From assembly GCF_003703475.1 (NCBI RefSeq), contig NZ_RDQM01000007.1, forward strand, positions 1-64,000: DNA of 64,000 nucleotides, in the 5' to 3' direction. Positions 8,343 to 60,756 of the stretch are shown one piece after another (within the stretch, counting starts at the first letter, position 1; every line of letters begins with the position of its first letter). The notes beneath the pieces were generated by a model. The model did not search any database. It was not told where the DNA came from and saw only the letters and a program-made list of their open reading frames with translations. The position numbers were made by a program, and so were the translations under genes. Source of the DNA: Allofranklinella schreckenbergeri. GTDB lineage: Bacteria > Pseudomonadota > Gammaproteobacteria > Burkholderiales > Burkholderiaceae_C.

Positions 8343-8452
8343 TTTACAAATCAAAGAAAGAAGAATTTTTCACTAACCCTTTCCAGCCAAGCCGAAAAGC
8401 TTCACCGAAAAATCCGATTGATCTGGAAATTAAAACAGCACAATCACCCATC
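8343..8452. repeat. Intergenic repeat element, copy 1 (degenerate)
   Basis: The left end TTTACAAATCAAAGAAAG matches the family end, followed by a decayed internal part (CACTAACCC, GCCGAAAAGC). A far end resembling AAACAGCACAATCACCC overlaps the rhlE stop (TGA). It lies in the porin/rhlE convergent junction. Confidence 0.6.
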
Positions 8453-10919: not shown

Positions 10920-11083
10920 TCCCGCGCTGTAGGGATGCTGGAGGCGGGCGCTTGCAGCCTCTCACCTCAAGGCGTACCCACAAGCGCTCCTACGCGCTGG
11001 GCCATGCTTTTGCGCAGGGCTCAAGCCCACAAAGCTGTACCAGGCGTGGCGGCGCGTTCCCCCCCACTCACCAAAGGATTGCC

Positions 11084-12277
11084 ATGCGCTCTATCGCTGC
11101 CATTGCCGAGAAACATGCCGAGCTGACTGCTATTCGGCGCGATCTCCACGCATACCCCGAATTGGCTTTTGAAGAGCACCGCACGGCAGATCTGATTGCC
11201 AACAAGCTGCTGGACTGGGGCATTGAGGTGCACAGCGGCCTGGCCACCACGGGCGTGGTGGGGCTGATCCACGGCAAGCACCGCCCGGTTCGCACGCGCC
11301 TGCTGGGCTTGCGCGCGGATATGGACGCCCTGCCCGTGCAGGAGCAAAACACCTTTGCCCATGCCAGCCGTCACCCCGGTTGCATGCACGCTTGCGGGCA
11401 CGACGGGCACGTTGCCATGCTGCTGGGCGCGGCGCAGTACCTGGCGGCAACGCGCGATTTCGCTGGCACCGTAGCGGTGATTTTTCAGCCCGCCGAGGAG
11501 TTCGGCGGCGGCGCCAATGTGATGCTGCGTGAAGGGCTGCTGGAGCGTTTTCCGCTCGAAGCCATTTTTGGCCTGCACAACATGCCCGGCATCCCGGCTG
11601 GCAGTTTTGCCCTCTCCAGCGGGCCGGTGCTGGCCTCCAACAACGAATTCAAGCTGCTCATCCAGGGCAAGGGCGGGCACGCCGCAATGCCGCATTTGAC
11701 GGCGGACCCGATCATCGTGGCCTCGCAAATCATCCCCGCGCTGCAAACCATCATCAGCCGTAACAAGCCGCCGCTGGAGTCGGCGGTCATCTCCGTGACC
11801 ACCATGCTCGCTGGCGACACCTTCAACGTCATCCCCGACCATTGCATGATGGGCGGGACGGTGCGCGCTTACACCACGCCAACGCTGGATTTGATCGAAA
11901 CGCGTATGCGCGAGGTGGCCGAAATGATCGCGCAGGCCCACGGGGCCAGCAGCGTTTTGGAGTTCAACCGCATCTACCCCGCCACCCACAACCACGAGGC
12001 GGAAACGAACTTCGCCCGCGAGGTGCTGAAAAAGCTCGTCGGCCCCAAACGGCTGCTCCAGCAAAGCCCGATCATGGCGGCGGAGGATTTTGCTTTCATG
12101 CTTGAGCGCGTGCCCGGCTGCTATGCCTTCATCGGCAACGGCGACGGCAGCCACCGCCTGGACGGCCACGGCCAAGGGCCATGCCTGGTGCACAACTCCA
12201 GCTACGACTTTAACGACGAGATCATTCCCCTGGGGGCGAGTTATTTCGCCCGACTGGTCGAGCGCTGGTTGATTTAA
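11084..12277 (+). CDS. M20 family amidohydrolase (hippurate hydrolase-like)
   Basis: 397 residues from ATG at 11084, with AAAGGA 6 nt upstream. The in-frame extension to 10952 is not family-like. Metal-site motifs: MDALPVQE (80-87), HACGHDGH (102-109), QPAEEFGGGA with the catalytic/metal Glu pair (138-139), and a C-terminal His region (CLVHNSSYDFND). A dimerisation domain lies between about 190 and 300 (GGHAAMPHLTADP). This subfamily (AbgA, IAA-amino acid hydrolases, hippurate hydrolase) cleaves N-acyl amino acids; the real substrate cannot be read from sequence. Cytoplasmic. It ends in a convergent junction with the Bug receptor gene. Confidence 0.9.
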   Translation: MRSIAAIAEKHAELTAIRRDLHAYPELAFEEHRTADLIANKLLDWGIEVHSGLATTGVVGLIHGKHRPVRTRLLGLRADMDALPVQEQNTFAHASRHPGCMHACGHDGHVAMLLGAAQYLAATRDFAGTVAVIFQPAEEFGGGANVMLREGLLERFPLEAIFGLHNMPGIPAGSFALSSGPVLASNNEFKLLIQGKGGHAAMPHLTADPIIVASQIIPALQTIISRNKPPLESAVISVTTMLAGDTFNVIPDHCMMGGTVRAYTTPTLDLIETRMREVAEMIAQAHGASSVLEFNRIYPATHNHEAETNFAREVLKKLVGPKRLLQQSPIMAAEDFAFMLERVPGCYAFIGNGDGSHRLDGHGQGPCLVHNSSYDFNDEIIPLGASYFARLVERWLI

Positions 12278-12316: not shown

Positions 12317-12390
12317 CACATCAAAGTAAAAACAATTCCCCAACTATATTGCCAAAACAAGGCAATTTTATTTCCTATTGATTTGTAAAA
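12317..12390. repeat. Intergenic repeat element, copy 2
   Basis: Left end CACATCAAAGTAAAAACAA; internal box on the right in reverse orientation (ATTGCCAAAACAAGG); right end TTTCCTATTGATTTGTAAAA. The right end runs directly into the terminator hairpin. Convergent junction. Confidence 0.85.
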
Positions 12391-12417
12391 AAGAGCCGCT
12401 TATGCGGCTCTTTTTTA
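12388..12417. terminator. Bidirectional terminator between amidohydrolase and Bug genes
   Basis: AAAAAAGAGCCGC / GCGGCTCTTTTTT with a 4-nt loop is symmetric, with A-runs before and T-runs after. It can therefore serve both convergent genes. Its A-run is shared with the end of repeat copy 2. Confidence 0.88.
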
Positions 12418-12429
12418 CTTAATGCGCTC

Positions 12430-13491
12430 TCATTGGGGCTTGAGGCCCAGCTTCTCCAACTGCGGCCCCCATTGCGTGCGCTCTTGGGCGATGCGCTGTG
12501 CAAATGCAGCGGCGCTTTCGTGCAGAGCGATGGAGCCGTTGGCGCGCATGGTTTTGAGAAAGCCCTCATCTTGCAGCGCTTGGCCGATGGCTTGGTTCAA
12601 GCGCTCAACAACGGCATCGGGCGTGCCCGCAGGCGCCACCACACCCAGCCAGACGGCGCTTTCAAACCCGGGGTAGCCCGCTTGCTCCAGCGTCGGCGCC
12701 TGGGCGAAGGTGGGGCTATCGACCTTTGGGCTGACGGCCAAGGCTTTGAGCCGCCCATCCTTGACCAATGGCTCCACCAGCGCGGTACCCGCGAAATACA
12801 CCTGGGTGTCGCCCGCCACGGTGGCGGTCAGCGCATCGGGGCCGGTTTTGTAGGGGATATGCACGATGTCCACACCCGCCTGCTTGCGCCAGAACTCGAA
12901 CAGCACATGCGGCGGGCTGCCGTTGCTGGAGCTGGCGTAATTGAGCGTGCCGGGCGCAGCTTTGGCTTTGGCGACCAGCTCGGCCAGCGTGCTCACCCCG
13001 GCTTTGGGGCTTGCCACCATCGCCATCGGCAACACCGCCACGGGGCTGACGGGCTGAAGGTCTTTGGCCGGGTCGTAGGTGAGTTTGGGAAAGACGTAGG
13101 GGTTCCACACCATATGCGCGTTGGTGACGATGGCCAGGGTGTGGCCATCGGCCGCACTGCTCTTGAGGTGTTGCAACGCCACCATGCCGCCCGCGCCGGG
13201 GCGGTTGTCCACTACCACGGATTGGCCCAGCGCCGCGTGCAGCTTTTCCGCCAAGGGCCGCGCAAAAATATCCGGCAGGCTGCCCGCTCCGCCGTTGACG
13301 ACGATGGTCATCGTCTGACTGGGAAAGGGCTTGGCAGCTCCGCCCTGTTGCGCCAGCGCCGCCTGGGACCAGGCCAGCAGCGCGACGCCCGCGGCGCATG
13401 CGCTCAAAGCGGCCAACATGCGCCGACGCGGTGTTACAGCTTGGTACATTCGGGCGGGGCTGCGGGATGTGATGGATGTGGGCGTACTCAT
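12430..13491 (-). CDS. Bug-family (TctC) periplasmic solute-binding receptor
   Basis: 353 residues. A long N-terminal region (about 1-25, with an RRRML segment) precedes a hydrophobic signal core, and cleavage is likely near AALAQQ. Family marks: FPSQTMTIVVNGGAGSLPDI, VVVDNRPGAGGMVA, DGHTLAIVTNAH, GTLNYASSSNGSPPH, HIPYKTGPDALT. Bug proteins bind carboxylates such as tricarboxylates, nicotinate or amino acids, and are highly expanded in Burkholderiales. No TctA/TctB membrane genes lie nearby, so it is an orphan receptor of unknown ligand. A later ATG (MYQAVTPRRR, residue 15) is an alternative start. Confidence 0.92.
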   Translation of the reverse strand: MSTPTSITSRSPARMYQAVTPRRRMLAALSACAAGVALLAWSQAALAQQGGAAKPFPSQTMTIVVNGGAGSLPDIFARPLAEKLHAALGQSVVVDNRPGAGGMVALQHLKSSAADGHTLAIVTNAHMVWNPYVFPKLTYDPAKDLQPVSPVAVLPMAMVASPKAGVSTLAELVAKAKAAPGTLNYASSSNGSPPHVLFEFWRKQAGVDIVHIPYKTGPDALTATVAGDTQVYFAGTALVEPLVKDGRLKALAVSPKVDSPTFAQAPTLEQAGYPGFESAVWLGVVAPAGTPDAVVERLNQAIGQALQDEGFLKTMRANGSIALHESAAAFAQRIAQERTQWGPQLEKLGLKPQ

Positions 13492-13559: not shown

Positions 13560-15533
13560 ATGGCTTTGTTTCCACAGATTTACAGCCGTATTCACAAACG
13601 CTGCGAGAACGCCGGGGAGCGCCTGGTGCTGGAGCAACTGCGCCGCTGCCTGGGCGACGATTGCATCGTCTGGCACGACATTCCCGTCGGCCCGTTGCAG
13701 CGCCGGCCGGACTTCGTGATCTTCAACCCCAGCCGTGGCGTGCTGGTGCTGGAGGTCAAGCACTGGAAGCTCTCCAGCATCCACGGCGGCAGCCGCACGC
13801 GCGTGCAATTGCTGCTCGAAGGCGGCATCACAAGCTGCCAACACCCGCAAGAGCAGGCCTACCAATGTGCGCTGCAAATCAACAATGTGCTGGCGCGCGA
13901 CGCCCGCCTGAAACAGACCGAGGCGCCCTACCAGGGCCAATGCGCCGTGCCCTATGGCTGGGGCGCGGTGATGAGCAACGTGCACCAAAGCCAGTGGCAA
14001 GACACGGATGCGCAAGCGCTCTTCCCCGCCGAACGCACGCTGACGCGCGACGATCTGGGCTCCACAGTCGCCCCCGAAGCATTCCAGGAGCGACTGTGGA
14101 GCCTGTTCACCGCGCGCTTTCCCACCGCGCTGACGCCGCCGCAGCAAGACCGTGTGCGCTGGCACCTGTTCCCCGAAATCCGCATCACCCATCCCAGTGC
14201 CACACCACGCGCGGGGGTGCGCACGGCAGATCAACAGGCTGCGCAACAGGCAGAACTTTTCGCCATTCCGGATCTGATGCAGGTGATGGATTTGAACCAG
14301 GAGCAAACCGCCCGCACGCTGGGCCGGGGCCACCGCGTCATCCACGGCGCGGCTGGCTCGGGCAAAACCATGATCCTGGTCTATCGCGCCCGCTATCTGG
14401 CGCAGCAAGCGCTGGGGCAGCCGGTGCTGGTGCTTTGCTACAACCGGCCGCTGGCCGATCGCATCGCCCACCAGCTTGCTGCGCACGGCGTGGCCCCGGA
14501 GCGCGTGGTCGTGCGCACCTTCCACGCCTGGTGCGAAGACATGCTGCGCCAGCACCACATCGCACCGCCCGCCTGTGCGCGGCGCAGCCCCGAGTACTTC
14601 CAAAGCCTGACCGAGCAAGTCGAGCGCGCCCTGCACACCGGCCAGTTGCCGCAAGGCCAATACGCCGCGCTGCTGATTGACGAAGCGCACGATTTCGACG
14701 CCGCCTGGCTGCGCATCGCCGCGCAAATGGTCAACCCGCAAACGCGCTCGCTGTTGGTGCTCTACGACGACGCCCAATCCATCTACAAACCCAGCCAAAA
14801 GCGCTTCAGCTTCGCCAGCGTAGGCATTGAGGCCAAAGGGCGCACCAGCATCCTGCGGCTCAATTACCGCAATACCGTGGAAGTGCTGGCGCTGGCCATG
14901 CAATGCGCCAACACCCTGCTCACCGAAGTGGGCGAGAGCGACGCGCATATGCAGCGCATCCGCCCCGCCAGCGCCGGGCGGCGCGGCCCCATGCCGCAAT
15001 TGCTGCGCTTTGCCAACGGGCGCGACGAGGCCCAAGCCCTGGCCGAGCACATCGCCGCGCTGGTTGAAGCGGGCACACCGCCCGAAGACATCGCCGTGCT
15101 CTGCCGCGACAAGTACAACTGGGCCATGCTGCAAACCGAGCTCAGCCGCCGCGACATCCCCTGGCAAACACGCGGCCAGCGTAACTCGCGCGGGCAAAAC
15201 GGCAATATCGATTGGGGCGAGCGCAGCGTCAAACTGCTGAGCATGCACGCCTCCAAAGGGCTGGAGTTCCCCCACGTCTTTCTCATGCGGGTGGATTTAA
15301 TGCCTGGCAAACATCCACTGGAAGAAGAATTGCGCGTGCTCTACGTGGCCATGACGCGCGCCACCGAGCGGCTCACCCTCTCCTGCGCAGGCGATTCTGA
15401 CATCGTGCAGCGCGTGCAAAGCGCCCTGCACGCCATCGCCGATTGGGATGCCTCAGAAGAGACAGCAGGGCCAGATGAGCATCACAAAATTATCAATCAA
15501 GAGAAAAAATTTCCGCCCATTTTGGCAAATTAA
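13560..15533 (+). CDS. NERD nuclease domain fused to UvrD/Rep-type helicase
   Basis: 657 residues from ATG at 13560 (MALFPQIYSR). The N-terminal NERD domain (about 15-125) has the nuclease core D51 (RRPDFVIF) and E65-V-K67 (VLEVKHW). The superfamily 1 helicase part has Walker A GAAGSGKT (263-270), motif II LLIDEAHDF (371-379), and a late motif SMHASKGLEF. Role inferred: ATP-driven DNA translocase with nuclease activity, in repair or in restriction of foreign DNA; similar fusions occur in defence neighbourhoods. The last residues (KIINQEKKFPPILAN) are encoded inside intergenic repeat copy 3. The neighbours give no pathway clue. Confidence 0.88.
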   Translation: MALFPQIYSRIHKRCENAGERLVLEQLRRCLGDDCIVWHDIPVGPLQRRPDFVIFNPSRGVLVLEVKHWKLSSIHGGSRTRVQLLLEGGITSCQHPQEQAYQCALQINNVLARDARLKQTEAPYQGQCAVPYGWGAVMSNVHQSQWQDTDAQALFPAERTLTRDDLGSTVAPEAFQERLWSLFTARFPTALTPPQQDRVRWHLFPEIRITHPSATPRAGVRTADQQAAQQAELFAIPDLMQVMDLNQEQTARTLGRGHRVIHGAAGSGKTMILVYRARYLAQQALGQPVLVLCYNRPLADRIAHQLAAHGVAPERVVVRTFHAWCEDMLRQHHIAPPACARRSPEYFQSLTEQVERALHTGQLPQGQYAALLIDEAHDFDAAWLRIAAQMVNPQTRSLLVLYDDAQSIYKPSQKRFSFASVGIEAKGRTSILRLNYRNTVEVLALAMQCANTLLTEVGESDAHMQRIRPASAGRRGPMPQLLRFANGRDEAQALAEHIAALVEAGTPPEDIAVLCRDKYNWAMLQTELSRRDIPWQTRGQRNSRGQNGNIDWGERSVKLLSMHASKGLEFPHVFLMRVDLMPGKHPLEEELRVLYVAMTRATERLTLSCAGDSDIVQRVQSALHAIADWDASEETAGPDEHHKIINQEKKFPPILAN

Positions 15534-15566
15534 TCAATGAAATGAATTTATTTTGATTTATAAAGT
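15485..15566. repeat. Intergenic repeat element, copy 3
   Basis: Left end AATTATCAATCAAGAGAAAA, internal box CCGCCCATTTTGGCAAAT, right end TTTATTTTGATTTATAAAG. It overlaps the 3' end of the NERD-helicase gene and abuts the convergent DUF1566 gene stop. Confidence 0.8.
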
Positions 15567-21082: not shown

Positions 21083-21169
21083 CTACAAATCAAAAGACAA
21101 TTTTCAAAAAATTTTTTATTTACAGTGTTGCCGAAATCAATTTTTCATATTTCTTTTGATTTGAAAAAT
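21083..21169. repeat. Intergenic repeat element, copy 4
   Basis: Left end CTACAAATCAAAAGACAATT; internal box in reverse orientation GTTGCCGAAATCAATTTTT; right end TTTCTTTTGATTTGAAAAAT. It touches the stop codon (TAA) of the leftward adenosyltransferase gene. Convergent junction. Confidence 0.85.
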
Positions 21170-24298: not shown

Positions 24299-24372
24299 TA
24301 CATCACAAGAAATACAGATTTACACCCAAAATGCCGAAACAAGGAAGTTATTTTTCCTATTGATTTATAAAA
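24299..24372. repeat. Intergenic repeat element, copy 5
   Basis: Left end ACATCACAAGAAATAC; reverse box AATGCCGAAACAAGGAAG; right end TTTTCCTATTGATTTATAAA. It overlaps the bioD stop codon, which is the TAA within the element's end. Convergent junction. Confidence 0.85.
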
Positions 24373-29837: not shown

Positions 29838-29982
29838 TTTTACAAATCAATGAGAAAAGAAACCACCCTGTTTCGGCAATTTGTGCAACAAGCCCTATTT
29901 TCTTTGAATTGCAATTCCGCATTTCATGAATTGCAATTCAAAGGCAAAAAAACCACCCCGTTTCGGCTTGATGGCAATCAAG
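29838..29982. repeat. Intergenic repeat element, copy 6 (double, divergent region)
   Basis: Two boxes in the same orientation: TTTACAAATCAATGAGAAAA with CCACCCTGTTTCGGCAAT at 29838-29883, and AATTCAAAGGCAAAAAAACC with CCACCCCGTTTCGGC from about 29935. Between them lie two GAATTGCAATTC palindromes (29906-29917, 29928-29939). This is the only copy in a divergent region (bioA / EamA gene). Confidence 0.8.
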
Positions 29983-30104
29983 CTGCTTTTCCGATGGTTT
30001 GGCAATGATTGGCAGGCCCGCAGCGCTTGCCGCTTTTGGGCACTGCCGCCGCCCGCCCACTGCAAAGGCCCCTACACTCGCCCTCTTTTGCTTTGGGAAG
30101 CACC

Positions 30105-32060: not shown

Positions 32061-32136
32061 TATTACAAATCAAAAGAAATGAAATAACCCTGTTTAGGCA
32101 ATATTTTAGTCAATTCAATTTTCTTTTGAAAAATAA
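32061..32136. repeat. Intergenic repeat element, copy 7
   Basis: Left end TATTACAAATCAAAAGAAAT; box AACCCTGTTTAGGCAATAT; right end AATTTTCTTTTGAAAAATAA. It is followed at once by a minus-strand terminator. Convergent junction. Confidence 0.88.
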
Positions 32137-33580: not shown

Positions 33581-34864
<1,284 letters not shown>

Positions 34865-34879
<15 letters not shown>

Positions 34880-34944
34880 GAAAACAAATCGCCCATTTTC
34901 GGCAACATATCGTTCAAATCAAATTTACATTGATTTGAAAATAT
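34865..34944. repeat. Intergenic repeat element, copy 8
   Basis: Left end TCTATAAATCAATAAGAAAA; box TCGCCCATTTTCGGCAACAT; right end TTACATTGATTTGAAAAT. It provides the lysA stop codon. Convergent junction with the FMN reductase gene. Confidence 0.88.
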
Positions 34945-37033: not shown

Positions 37034-37057
37034 GTTGATTTCCTTTGATTTGAAAAA
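37034..37057. repeat. Intergenic repeat element, copy 9 (end remnant)
   Basis: Only the right end GATTTCCTTTGATTTGAAAA remains, fused to the terminator. No internal box is visible. Confidence 0.6.
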
Positions 37058-39874: not shown

Positions 39875-39948
39875 GACAAATCAAACTGAAATCAACTTCA
39901 ATATCATCATGCCAAAATAGGGTGATTTATTTTCTTTTTGATTTGTAA
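39875..39948. repeat. Intergenic repeat element, copy 10
   Basis: Left end GACAAATCAAACTGAAATCA; reverse box ATGCCAAAATAGGGTGATTT; right end TTTTCTTTTTGATTTGTAAA. Both inverted ends are well preserved. It lies between two tandem rightward genes and runs into a terminator. Confidence 0.9.
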
Positions 39949-39973
39949 AAAGCGGGCTTTCGCCCGCTTTTTG
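39947..39973 (+). terminator. Intrinsic terminator fused to repeat copy 10
   Basis: AAAAAGCGGGC / GCCCGCTTTTT with a TTTC loop. The 5' A-run is the end of the repeat. Confidence 0.85.
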
Positions 39974-41675: not shown

Positions 41676-41753
41676 TTTTTTACATTTCAAAAGAAAAAAA
41701 TTCACCCAATTTCGGCAATATAGGCATGAATCGATATTTACTTTGATATGGAA
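41676..41753. repeat. Intergenic repeat element, copy 11
   Basis: Left end TTTACATTTCAAAAGAAAAA; box TTCACCCAATTTCGGCAATAT; right end TTTACTTTGATATGG. Convergent junction creD/serB. Confidence 0.85.
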
Positions 41754-52192: not shown

Positions 52193-52213
52193 CGCGCCGC
52201 CGCCCCAAAAAGC

Positions 52214-52245
52214 AAAGGCCGCTCGGCATATAGCCAGCGGCCTTT
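52214..52245. terminator. Hairpin after TerB-like gene
   Basis: AAAGGCCGCT pairs with AGCGGCCTTT over a 12-nt loop, followed by GTTATTT. The T tract is imperfect. Repeat copy 12 begins just after. Confidence 0.6.
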
Positions 52246-52248
52246 GTT

Positions 52249-52327
52249 ATTTCAATCAAACTAAAATTCACATCATGTATATGATGCCAAAAAAGCATAA
52301 TTTTATTTCTTTTGAAATATAAAATTT
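52249..52327. repeat. Intergenic repeat element, copy 12
   Basis: Left end ATTTCAATCAAACTAAAATT; reverse box ATGCCAAAAAAGCATAATTT; right end ATTTCTTTTGAAATATAAAA. It lies between the rightward TerB-like gene and the leftward tRNA, a convergent arrangement. Confidence 0.78.
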
Positions 52328-56970: not shown

Positions 56971-57005
56971 CAACACAAAGCGGGCCTTGCGCCCGCTTTG
57001 TGTTG
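56971..57005. terminator. 15-bp perfect inverted repeat after ppsA
   Basis: CAACACAAAGCGGGC, 5-nt loop, then the exact complement ending TTTGTGTTG. No continuous T-run, but adjacent repeat copy 13 is AT-rich. Confidence 0.6.
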
Positions 57006-57084
57006 CAAAATCAATCAAAAGAAAACACCAATCAATACCAAATTGCCGAAACAGCGCGATTATTTTTCTTTTGATTTGTAATTT
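57006..57084. repeat. Intergenic repeat element, copy 13
   Basis: Left end AAAATCAATCAAAAGAAAAC; reverse box AATTGCCGAAACAGCGCGAT; right end TTTTTCTTTTGATTTGTAAT. Both ends and the box are well preserved. It overlaps the last codons of the leftward gene at 57060. Convergent junction. Confidence 0.92.
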
Positions 57085-58387: not shown

Positions 58388-58463
58388 ATTTACAAATCAA
58401 TAGGAATAAAAACCACCCTATTTAGGCAACATGGAAATGAAATCATTTTTCCTATATGGAAAC
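58388..58463. repeat. Intergenic repeat element, copy 14
   Basis: Left end TTTACAAATCAATAGGAATA; box ACCACCCTATTTAGGCAACAT; right end weak (CATTTTTCCTATATGG). It lies upstream of lspA and downstream of scpA, both leftward. Confidence 0.85.
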
Positions 58464-60679: not shown

Positions 60680-60756
60680 TTTTCCAATTCAAAGGAAATA
60701 AAATGCCCTTTAATTGGCTTGATAGTCAAAATGGTCGATTTCCTTTGATCTGATTA
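60679..60756. repeat. Intergenic repeat element, copy 15
   Basis: Left end TTTTCCAATTCAAAGGAAAT (the AATTCAAAGG variant also seen in copy 6), box ATGCCCTTTAATTGGCTTGAT, right end GATTTCCTTTGATCTGATTA. It includes the stop codons of both convergent genes (bamE-like and araC-type). Confidence 0.75.

What the first reader, a model, noticed from the sequence alone, without database searches (positions are those of the whole stretch)
12317..12417. Repeat elements fused to intrinsic terminators
Copies 2, 7, 9 and 10 run straight into a G/C hairpin whose A- or T-run is the end of the element. Copies 1, 4, 12 and 13 start within about 20 bp of a hairpin. The AT-rich element end could provide the U tract for one strand, giving a composite bidirectional terminator.
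Basis: partly seen in the sequence, partly recalled or inferred. Interest (0 to 1): 0.55.

Follow-up and report, generated by a model that had tools for sequence, protein, structure and literature searches.

The report
Selected DNA element at gene ends
Two closely related bacteria carry hundreds of copies of a 75-letter AT-rich DNA element, roughly one for every four genes and mostly just past gene ends, kept intact by natural selection; it is a separate thing from the ordinary hairpin terminators that sometimes sit next to it, and its function is still unproven.

Summary
The fusion at 12317-12417 is real: a 74-bp AT-rich element (12317-12390, minus strand) abuts a strong two-way hairpin (12390-12413). 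But hairpin fusion is not a property of the element. In 864 kb of this genome 17 of 194 copies have a hairpin within 5 bp; 16.9 are expected if each copy is placed at random in its own gap. A sister species agrees (11 of 89 against 9.9). Only 11 of 269 predicted terminators take their U-tract from an element end.

The element itself is the finding. It has two inverted arms (CAAATCAAAAGGAAA) and a central TTTcGGCA at fixed spacing, with an estimated 630 copies. Among 10 genomes of the genus it is abundant in two. It lies mostly just past stop codons: 52 of 84 convergent, 116 of 325 codirectional and 15 of 92 divergent gaps hold one. It is nearly always single (5 multiple gaps, 32 expected) and unoriented. 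Sister copies keep their profile score (+2.0 bits; neutral simulation loses about 18) and length. The arms barely covary. I read it as a protein-bound, symmetric DNA boundary at transcription-unit ends; roadblock termination or a supercoil/nucleoid role is inferred, not shown.

The parts
12317..12390 (-). Element copy named in the finding
   Evidence: nhmmer E 6.6e-16; 63.9 bits with model R1
12390..12413 (.). Bidirectional intrinsic-terminator hairpin abutting the element's left end, between a + strand M20 peptidase gene (10952-12277) and a - strand TctC receptor gene (12430-13491)
   Evidence: Pfam
8343..8362 (+).
   Evidence: nhmmer E 1.8 only, below the inclusion threshold; sequence; hairpin
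15495..15559 (+). Weak element copy at the end of a + strand gene
   Evidence: E 1.8e-5; degenerate in the sister species too
21105..21168 (-). Element copy
   Evidence: E 1.4e-8
24300..24372 (-). Element copy between convergent genes
   Evidence: E 2.1e-14; context
29838..29911 (+). Element copy (first of a close pair in a divergent gap)
   Evidence: E 8e-17; context
29931..30000 (+). Element copy with a hairpin (29964-29985) inside its right half
   Evidence: E 1.8e-11; hairpin
32062..32129 (+). Element copy between convergent genes
   Evidence: E 7.4e-15; context
34864..34937 (+). Element copy between convergent genes
   Evidence: E 2.5e-14; context
39877..39950 (-). Element copy abutting a hairpin (39951-39968)
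   Evidence: E 7.7e-16; hairpin
41678..41750 (+). Element copy between convergent genes
   Evidence: E 1.4e-16; context
52253..52324 (-). Element copy, 5 bp from a hairpin (52212-52247)
   Evidence: E 7.1e-12; hairpin
57013..57081 (-). Element copy between convergent genes, hairpin at 56980-56996
   Evidence: E 6.8e-16; context; hairpin
58389..58456 (+). Element copy
   Evidence: E 4.2e-15
60680..60752 (+). Element copy between convergent genes
   Evidence: E 1.9e-13; context

Best explanation
The repeat is a symmetric DNA site of about 75 bp that a host DNA-binding protein (unidentified) recognises through two inverted arms and a central block. It stands as a single boundary mark at the 3' end of roughly a third of transcription units (an estimate from codirectional gaps), and so at just over half of convergent gene pairs. 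Shown by computation on the sampled DNA: the anatomy, the placement, the near absence of second copies in a gap, the absence of orientation bias, purifying selection on copies compared with the sister species, weak arm covariation, and independence from predicted hairpin terminators. Inferred: that a protein binds it, and that the bound site stops or releases RNA polymerase arriving from either side, or holds a topoisomerase or nucleoid protein where transcription units end. The adjacent hairpins are ordinary intrinsic terminators sharing short intergenic gaps.
For: Placement: 192 of 194 copies are outside called genes. Codirectional gaps: median 18 bp after the stop codon, 86 nearer the stop and 31 nearer the next start, of 119. 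Occupied gaps of at least 60 bp: 52/84 convergent, 116/325 codirectional, 15/92 divergent; G005: 31/45, 49/144, 4/43. Multiple copies: 5 of 602 non-divergent gaps against 31.6 expected by length, and occupancy of convergent and codirectional gaps hardly depends on length above 40 bp. Spacing is more even than random eligible gaps (CV 0.76 against 0.89, p 0.003). Orientation in codirectional gaps: 57 sense, 62 antisense. Selection: 40 sister orthologues score 2.0 +/- 1.4 bits higher than the copies they were found from, against a simulated neutral loss of about 18 bits (one of the 41 located copies, 15495, had no profile hit in G005 and was left out). Gap columns are 0.9% inside the element and 8-13% in flanking intergenic DNA; arms and core show few changes, spacers up to 44% (39 pairs). 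Arm pairing is 75.4% Watson-Crick against 73.1% when arms are swapped between copies, so a base-paired stem is not mainly what is kept.
Against: No binding protein was identified and nothing was measured in cells. Gene ends with an element do not clearly lack intrinsic terminators, and this clade has more of them than three relatives without abundant elements, so the element does not obviously replace them. Divergent gaps over 300 bp hold one in 10 of 33 cases, about as often as codirectional gaps; unseen small genes might explain this but were not checked. Averaged over its whole length the element changes slightly faster than other intergenic DNA (13.5% against 10.7%; more conserved in 16 of 30 loci). 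Arm pairing, though small, exceeds permutation (z 4.5) and copies fold somewhat better than shuffles (mean z -1.84 over 188), so some RNA or cruciform contribution is not excluded. A 3' location is also where any tolerated insertion would survive. Gene calls come from my own simple caller.
Confidence: 0.5

Rival explanations
1. Composite terminator: the AT-rich end of the element supplies the U-tract of an adjoining GC hairpin.
For: Clear cases at 12390-12413 and 39951-39968. Left ends, which begin with T-runs, carry 12 of the 17 abutting cases.
Against: 17 of 194 abutting against 16.9 expected, much the same in G005 (11 of 89 against 9.9). Only 11 of 269 terminators have their tract in an element. 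Where both occur, hairpin-first and element-first are 21 and 22 in convergent gaps, 16 and 9 in codirectional gaps.
Confidence: 0.07
2. Topological or nucleoid site in the manner of E. coli BIMEs: the bound element recruits gyrase or a nucleoid protein where positive supercoils build up beyond gene ends. This is a sub-version of the best explanation without termination.
For: Convergent preference, few second copies, even spacing and no clear complementarity with intrinsic terminators. Gyrase cleaves BIME-2 and acts downstream of highly transcribed units in E. coli (PMC6379681, passages read).
Against: No sequence relation to BIMEs was seen. In the same paper BIME-2 cleavage rose when transcription was blocked, so BIME-2 is not simply a response to transcription. 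The IHF consensus is exact in only 2 of 188 copies. No gyrase data for this organism.
Confidence: 0.3
3. RNA element of 3' untranslated regions: the inverted arms form a hairpin in the transcript that stabilises or processes mRNA.
For: Location just after stop codons; copies fold better than dinucleotide shuffles, mean z -1.84 with 43% below -2 (two window copies gave -0.4 and -1.1); inverted arms; small excess of arm pairing.
Against: No orientation bias although the core is not palindromic (57 sense, 62 antisense; 28 and 24). With columns close to independent between copies, arm pairing hardly covaries. RNAalifold finds no consensus pair in the 14 window copies. No Rfam match at gathering score.
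Confidence: 0.13
4. Inert remnants of an old miniature transposon burst, now decaying.
For: Inverted ends, high copy number, restriction to one small clade.
Against: Orthologous copies do not decay and keep their length. Second copies in a gap are far rarer than by length. No convincing target-site duplication and no transposase-sized pair of arms in 864 kb. No near-identical copies (best pair 88%).
Confidence: 0.06

Closest known systems
BIME / REP repeats of E. coli and relatives (and REPINs)
   Same: Hundreds of intergenic copies, inverted-repeat ends, at gene 3' ends (REP location recalled).
   Different: REPs are short palindromes of 20-40 bp (abstract start of PMC3733652 in a search listing); this is AT-rich, about 75 bp, with three blocks at fixed spacing. 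No IS200-like/RAYT transposase (PF01797) match in G000 or in G005, whose genome is 80% complete.
Rho-independent bidirectional terminators
   Same: Same places: gene ends and convergent gaps, usable from both sides.
   Different: No consensus hairpin in the 14 window copies; statistically independent of predicted terminators.
MITEs / Correia-type elements (definitions recalled)
   Same: Short, AT-rich, inverted ends, many copies.
   Different: No convincing target-site duplication, no partner transposase found in the 31% examined, no near-identical copies, purifying selection at the compared loci.
DNA uptake sequences (DUS/USS)
   Same: Many copies that look like draws from one profile; in some species they lie in terminators (recalled; the title of Kingsford 2007 was seen only in a reference list; a paper search found none).
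   Different: Three blocks over about 75 bp rather than a short core (recalled), and 192 of 194 copies are outside genes.
Protein roadblock termination (for example Reb1 in yeast, repressor roadblocks in E. coli; recalled)
   Same: What the element would work like: a bound protein at gene ends stopping polymerase.
   Different: I know of no genome-wide bacterial case (recall; one search, listed two papers, of which only the abstract starts were seen, PMC13082048 on roadblocks among them). Nothing here shows the protein or the block.

Membership tests
Intrinsic terminator (or composite with one) | GC-rich hairpin followed by a U-tract within the element | tested here: not met
   RNAalifold finds no consensus pair in 14 copies; 16 of 269 predicted hairpins overlap an element
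Intrinsic terminator (or composite with one) | Association with adjoining hairpins beyond chance | tested here: not met
   17 of 194 against 16.9; 13 of 140 against 12.8; 11 of 89 against 9.9
REP/BIME/REPIN | Companion RAYT (Y1 transposase) in the genome | tested here: not met
   PF01797: no match in G000 (99% complete) or G005 (80% complete)
REP/BIME/REPIN | Location at gene 3' ends | tested here: met
REP/BIME/REPIN | GTAG or CGTC tag at the foot of a short palindrome (definition from a search listing and recall) | tested here: not met
   Consensus has no such foot, read by eye
MITE | Terminal inverted repeats | tested here: met
   CAAATCAAAAGGAAA / TTTTCCTTTGATTTG in the consensus
MITE | Target-site duplication | tested here: inconclusive
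   No offset stood out convincingly in 188 copies; the test is weak for old insertions
MITE | Autonomous partner with the same ends | tested here: inconclusive
   22 lone arms, no inverted pair 60-4000 bp apart, in the 31% of the genome examined
DNA uptake sequence | Short core found in genes as well as between them (recalled) | tested here: not met
   192 of 194 copies outside genes; constraint spread over three blocks
IHF site | WATCAANNNNTTR (recalled consensus) | tested here: not met
   2 of 188 copies
Known RNA family | Rfam match at gathering score | tested here: not met
   Only a tRNA in the window
Protein roadblock terminator | Bound protein and transcript ends at the site | not testable with these tools
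   Needs binding and RNA 3'-end data

The most novel reading that the evidence does not exclude
A single bacterial lineage has evolved a genome-wide, protein-dependent, bidirectional transcription boundary: a dedicated three-block DNA site, one per gene end or convergent pair, that stops or insulates RNA polymerase independently of RNA hairpins.
Probability: 0.25. Interest if true: 0.85.

Novelty: new variant of a known kind. Interest (0 to 1): 0.6.

Why it matters
Interspersed bacterial repeats are usually argued to be either selfish debris or host sites, with little locus-by-locus evidence (my own view of the field). Here copies can be shown to be held by selection between two species while their spacers run free, and they follow a near one-per-gene-end rule. 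That makes the question of what repeats at gene 3' ends do directly testable, in a clade where relatives of the same genus with few or no copies serve as controls.

Tried and rejected
Hairpin fusion as the basis of the element: rejected by placement nulls in two genomes. Element as a substitute for intrinsic terminators: gene ends with and without it do not differ clearly, and relatives with few or no copies have fewer predicted terminators, not more (gene ends in convergent gaps of at least 40 bp: G000 77/176, G005 48/92, G006 16/100, G001 7/24, G004 7/30). That comparison counts terminators overlapping elements and is affected by base composition and by smaller samples of the relatives.

RAYT mobilisation: rejected. 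Target-site duplications and an autonomous element: not found. IHF: rejected. Plasmid and phage relatives of one window copy: none; an exact pattern in viral contigs: none. Analogous over-represented words in gene-end gaps of G006, G001 and G004 (154, 81 and 97 gaps): none that look like an element; for G001 no word passed the count threshold. The 12 kb, 12 kb and 10.5 kb stretches of G006, G008 and G009 that match part of the window hold no element. My first arm-register test used a wrong range of offsets and was replaced. Paper searches for this element: Comamonadaceae with 'intergenic repeat' gave none; a broader one gave only the RAYT paper (listing). The statement that it is undescribed rests on those two searches, on Rfam, and on a find in one REP survey whose main text does not mention Comamonadaceae, Burkholderiales or Acidovorax (PMC12306157).

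Full report
WHAT WAS CLAIMED.

THE PLACE ITSELF. At 12317-12390 (minus strand) there is a copy of the repeat. Directly beside it, at 12390-12413, is a hairpin flanked by A6 and T6 that folds at -24.8 and -24.5 kcal/mol on the two strands. It lies between a + strand M20 peptidase gene and a - strand TctC receptor gene, so it is an ordinary two-way intrinsic terminator between convergent genes. The element's TTTTT end overlaps the hairpin's T-run on the minus strand.

THE ELEMENT. A profile of 14 window copies found at least 150 copies in the genome (150 candidates were scored and all matched). In the 864 kb read here (window plus 40 stretches) a refined profile finds 194 copies at E < 1e-3, of 210 at E up to 1, or 225 per Mb. 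Extrapolated to 2.82 Mb that is about 630. Fourteen of the 194 are in the 64 kb window; a degenerate arm at 8343 and a 23-bp partial hit at 37035-37057 are not counted. The consensus is TTTTACAAATCAAAAGGAAAAAAAATAACCTTGTTTCGGCATGATGGTAATAAAGTTAATTTTCCTTTGATTTG. It has two inverted arms with centres about 58 bp apart and a TTTcGGCA block close to the dyad centre.

HAIRPINS. With one scanner on all intergenic DNA (stem at least 5 pairs, at least 4 G-C pairs, dG <= -10, T-tract), 17 of 194 copies have a hairpin within 5 bp and 32 within 20 bp. Random placement of each copy within its own gap gives 16.9 +/- 3.0 and 30.3 +/- 3.4. The 140 copies in gaps of at least 140 bp give 13 and 26 against 12.8 and 24.8. 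In G005 it is 11 and 14 of 89 against 9.9 and 16.5. Only 11 of 269 terminators have their U-tract in an element end. Leaving out the 16 that overlap an element, gene ends with an element have a terminator in 36/108 (convergent) and 23/116 (codirectional) cases, those without in 30/68 and 48/233. The fusions are best explained as crowding of two features in short gaps.

PLACEMENT. Only 2 of 194 copies have their midpoint inside called genes. In codirectional gaps the copy lies a median 18 bp after the upstream stop codon (86 nearer the stop, 31 nearer the next start, of 119). Among gaps of at least 60 bp, 52/84 convergent, 116/325 codirectional and 15/92 divergent gaps hold one. With the element subtracted, occupancy of convergent gaps by size class is 5/7, 7/11, 11/17, 17/32, 8/17 and 4/8; of codirectional gaps 26-33% above 40 bp and 11-12% below; of divergent gaps 0/7 below 80 bp, 1/16, 4/40, and 10/33 above 300 bp. 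The last figure does not fit a pure gene-end rule unless such gaps hide small genes, which was not checked. Five of 602 non-divergent gaps hold more than one; length-weighted scatter predicts 31.6 +/- 3.5. Spacing is more even than random eligible gaps (CV 0.76 against 0.89, p 0.003). If about 0.3 of gene ends at unit boundaries carry one, convergent gaps should be about 51% occupied, close to the observed 52 of 92 (inference). Orientation relative to the upstream gene in codirectional gaps is 57 sense and 62 antisense. G005 repeats the pattern: 31/45, 49/144, 4/43; multiple non-divergent gaps 5 against 14.9 expected; orientation 28 and 24; 37 of 52 nearer the stop; 3 of 93 copies inside genes. 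It is not a fully independent sample, since many loci are orthologous.

SELECTION. G005 is 94% identical to the window over a 13 kb stretch, with 8.7% divergence at four-fold sites of 107 genes. Of 41 copies whose two flanks were located in G005, 39 are present at the same place by profile; the other two are still visible as diverged copies in alignment. In the other direction 38 of 40 are present; of the two exceptions one is present on alignment and one is a real difference. In 39 aligned pairs (copies with E <= 1e-5), gap columns are 0.9% inside the element, 13% in the 20 bp beside it and 8% in other intergenic DNA. Changes are few in the arms and core (0-3 of 39 at most columns of AATCAA, GGCA and TTTT) and up to 17 of 39 in the spacers. 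Mean substitution over the whole element (13.5%) is higher than in other intergenic DNA (10.7%) and lower than in the 20 bp beside it (19.6%), and the element was the more conserved of the two in 16 loci and the less in 14. So the constraint is on blocks and length, not on the overall sequence. The cleanest test: with a profile trained on 150 other copies, 40 sister orthologues score 2.0 +/- 1.4 bits more than the copies they were found from, whereas the same number of random substitutions would cost about 18 bits (38 of 40 above the neutral mean). The copy at 15495, without a profile hit in G005, was not among the 40.

PROBABLY NOT AN RNA STEM, NOT VISIBLY MOBILE NOW. Mean identity between copies is 0.628; the best pair is 0.88. 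Shuffling each column between copies gives a somewhat narrower spread (sd 0.051 against 0.062) and a maximum of about 0.82, so columns are close to independent, with slight family structure and no near-identical pairs (the equal mean is true by construction). At that divergence a required stem would be expected to covary strongly, yet Watson-Crick pairing of the arms is 75.4% against 73.1% after swapping arms between copies (z 4.5, small but not zero). Copies do fold somewhat better than shuffles (mean z -1.84), as inverted arms must. No RAYT, no convincing target duplication and no autonomous pair in 864 kb were found.

DISTRIBUTION. Of 10 genomes of the genus, two have at least 150 copies (lists capped), and G006, G008 and G009 have 3, 1 and 1. 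None of 30 genomes from other genera of the family and order match at E <= 0.001. In a sample of 399 family genomes, under stricter filters, only G000 and G006 match (G005 and G009 are not among the rows listed). One G006 copy and one degenerate G006/G008 copy lie in stretches unusually like this clade. The first is 98% identical to G005 over 1.9 kb (88% to G000). The second is 97% (G008) and 94% (G006) identical to G000 over 3 kb, while the longer matches of G006 and G008 to the window are mostly 73-79% identical, at most 86%. They look like recombination imports (inference). In the second, the arms are unrecognisable while the core remains, as expected if arms are kept only where their partner protein exists; this is a single case and the direction of change is inferred.

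MECHANISM. The best reading is a protein-bound, two-sided boundary at transcription-unit ends. Roadblock termination and a topological or nucleoid role both fit; the lack of clear complementarity with intrinsic terminators leans slightly against pure termination. BIME-2 sites in E. coli are the closest functional analogy (gyrase cleavage in BIME-2, and more gyrase downstream of transcribed units; the paper also finds that BIME-2 cleavage rises when transcription is blocked; PMC6379681, passages read), without sequence or transposase kinship seen here.

LIMITS. Gene starts and ends come from my own codon-based caller. About 31% of the genome was examined. The binding protein is hypothetical.

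Noticed in passing
L136 (G006:C2), 1445-2140: Array of 3.5 units of 197 bp, 97% matching, three of whose units have weak partial matches to the element model; followed by a 253-bp tandem array.
   Followed up: partly
L126 (G008), L133 (G006), L167 (G000): A 3 kb stretch 94-97% identical between species whose longer matches to the window are mostly 73-79% identical, suggesting recombination between congeners; the element there has no recognisable arms in G006 and G008.
   Followed up: partly
G000 and G005 stretches against G006, G001, G004: Gene ends in convergent gaps carry predicted intrinsic terminators 1.5 to 3 times as often in the element-bearing clade (77/176 and 48/92) as in three relatives (16/100, 7/24, 7/30); base composition may explain part of it.
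   Followed up: partly
element spacers, G000 against G005: Spacer columns differ in up to 44% of orthologous pairs, well above four-fold sites (8.7%), and differences per pair are over-dispersed (variance 23.0 against 7.7 expected for 16 ungapped 74-bp pairs, 9.8 against 5.1 for 10 of 73 bp); possible exchange between copies, not tested.
   Followed up: no
window 29838-30000: Two copies in the same orientation about 20 bp apart in a divergent gap, one of only 7 gaps of 699 with two copies in the sample.
   Followed up: no
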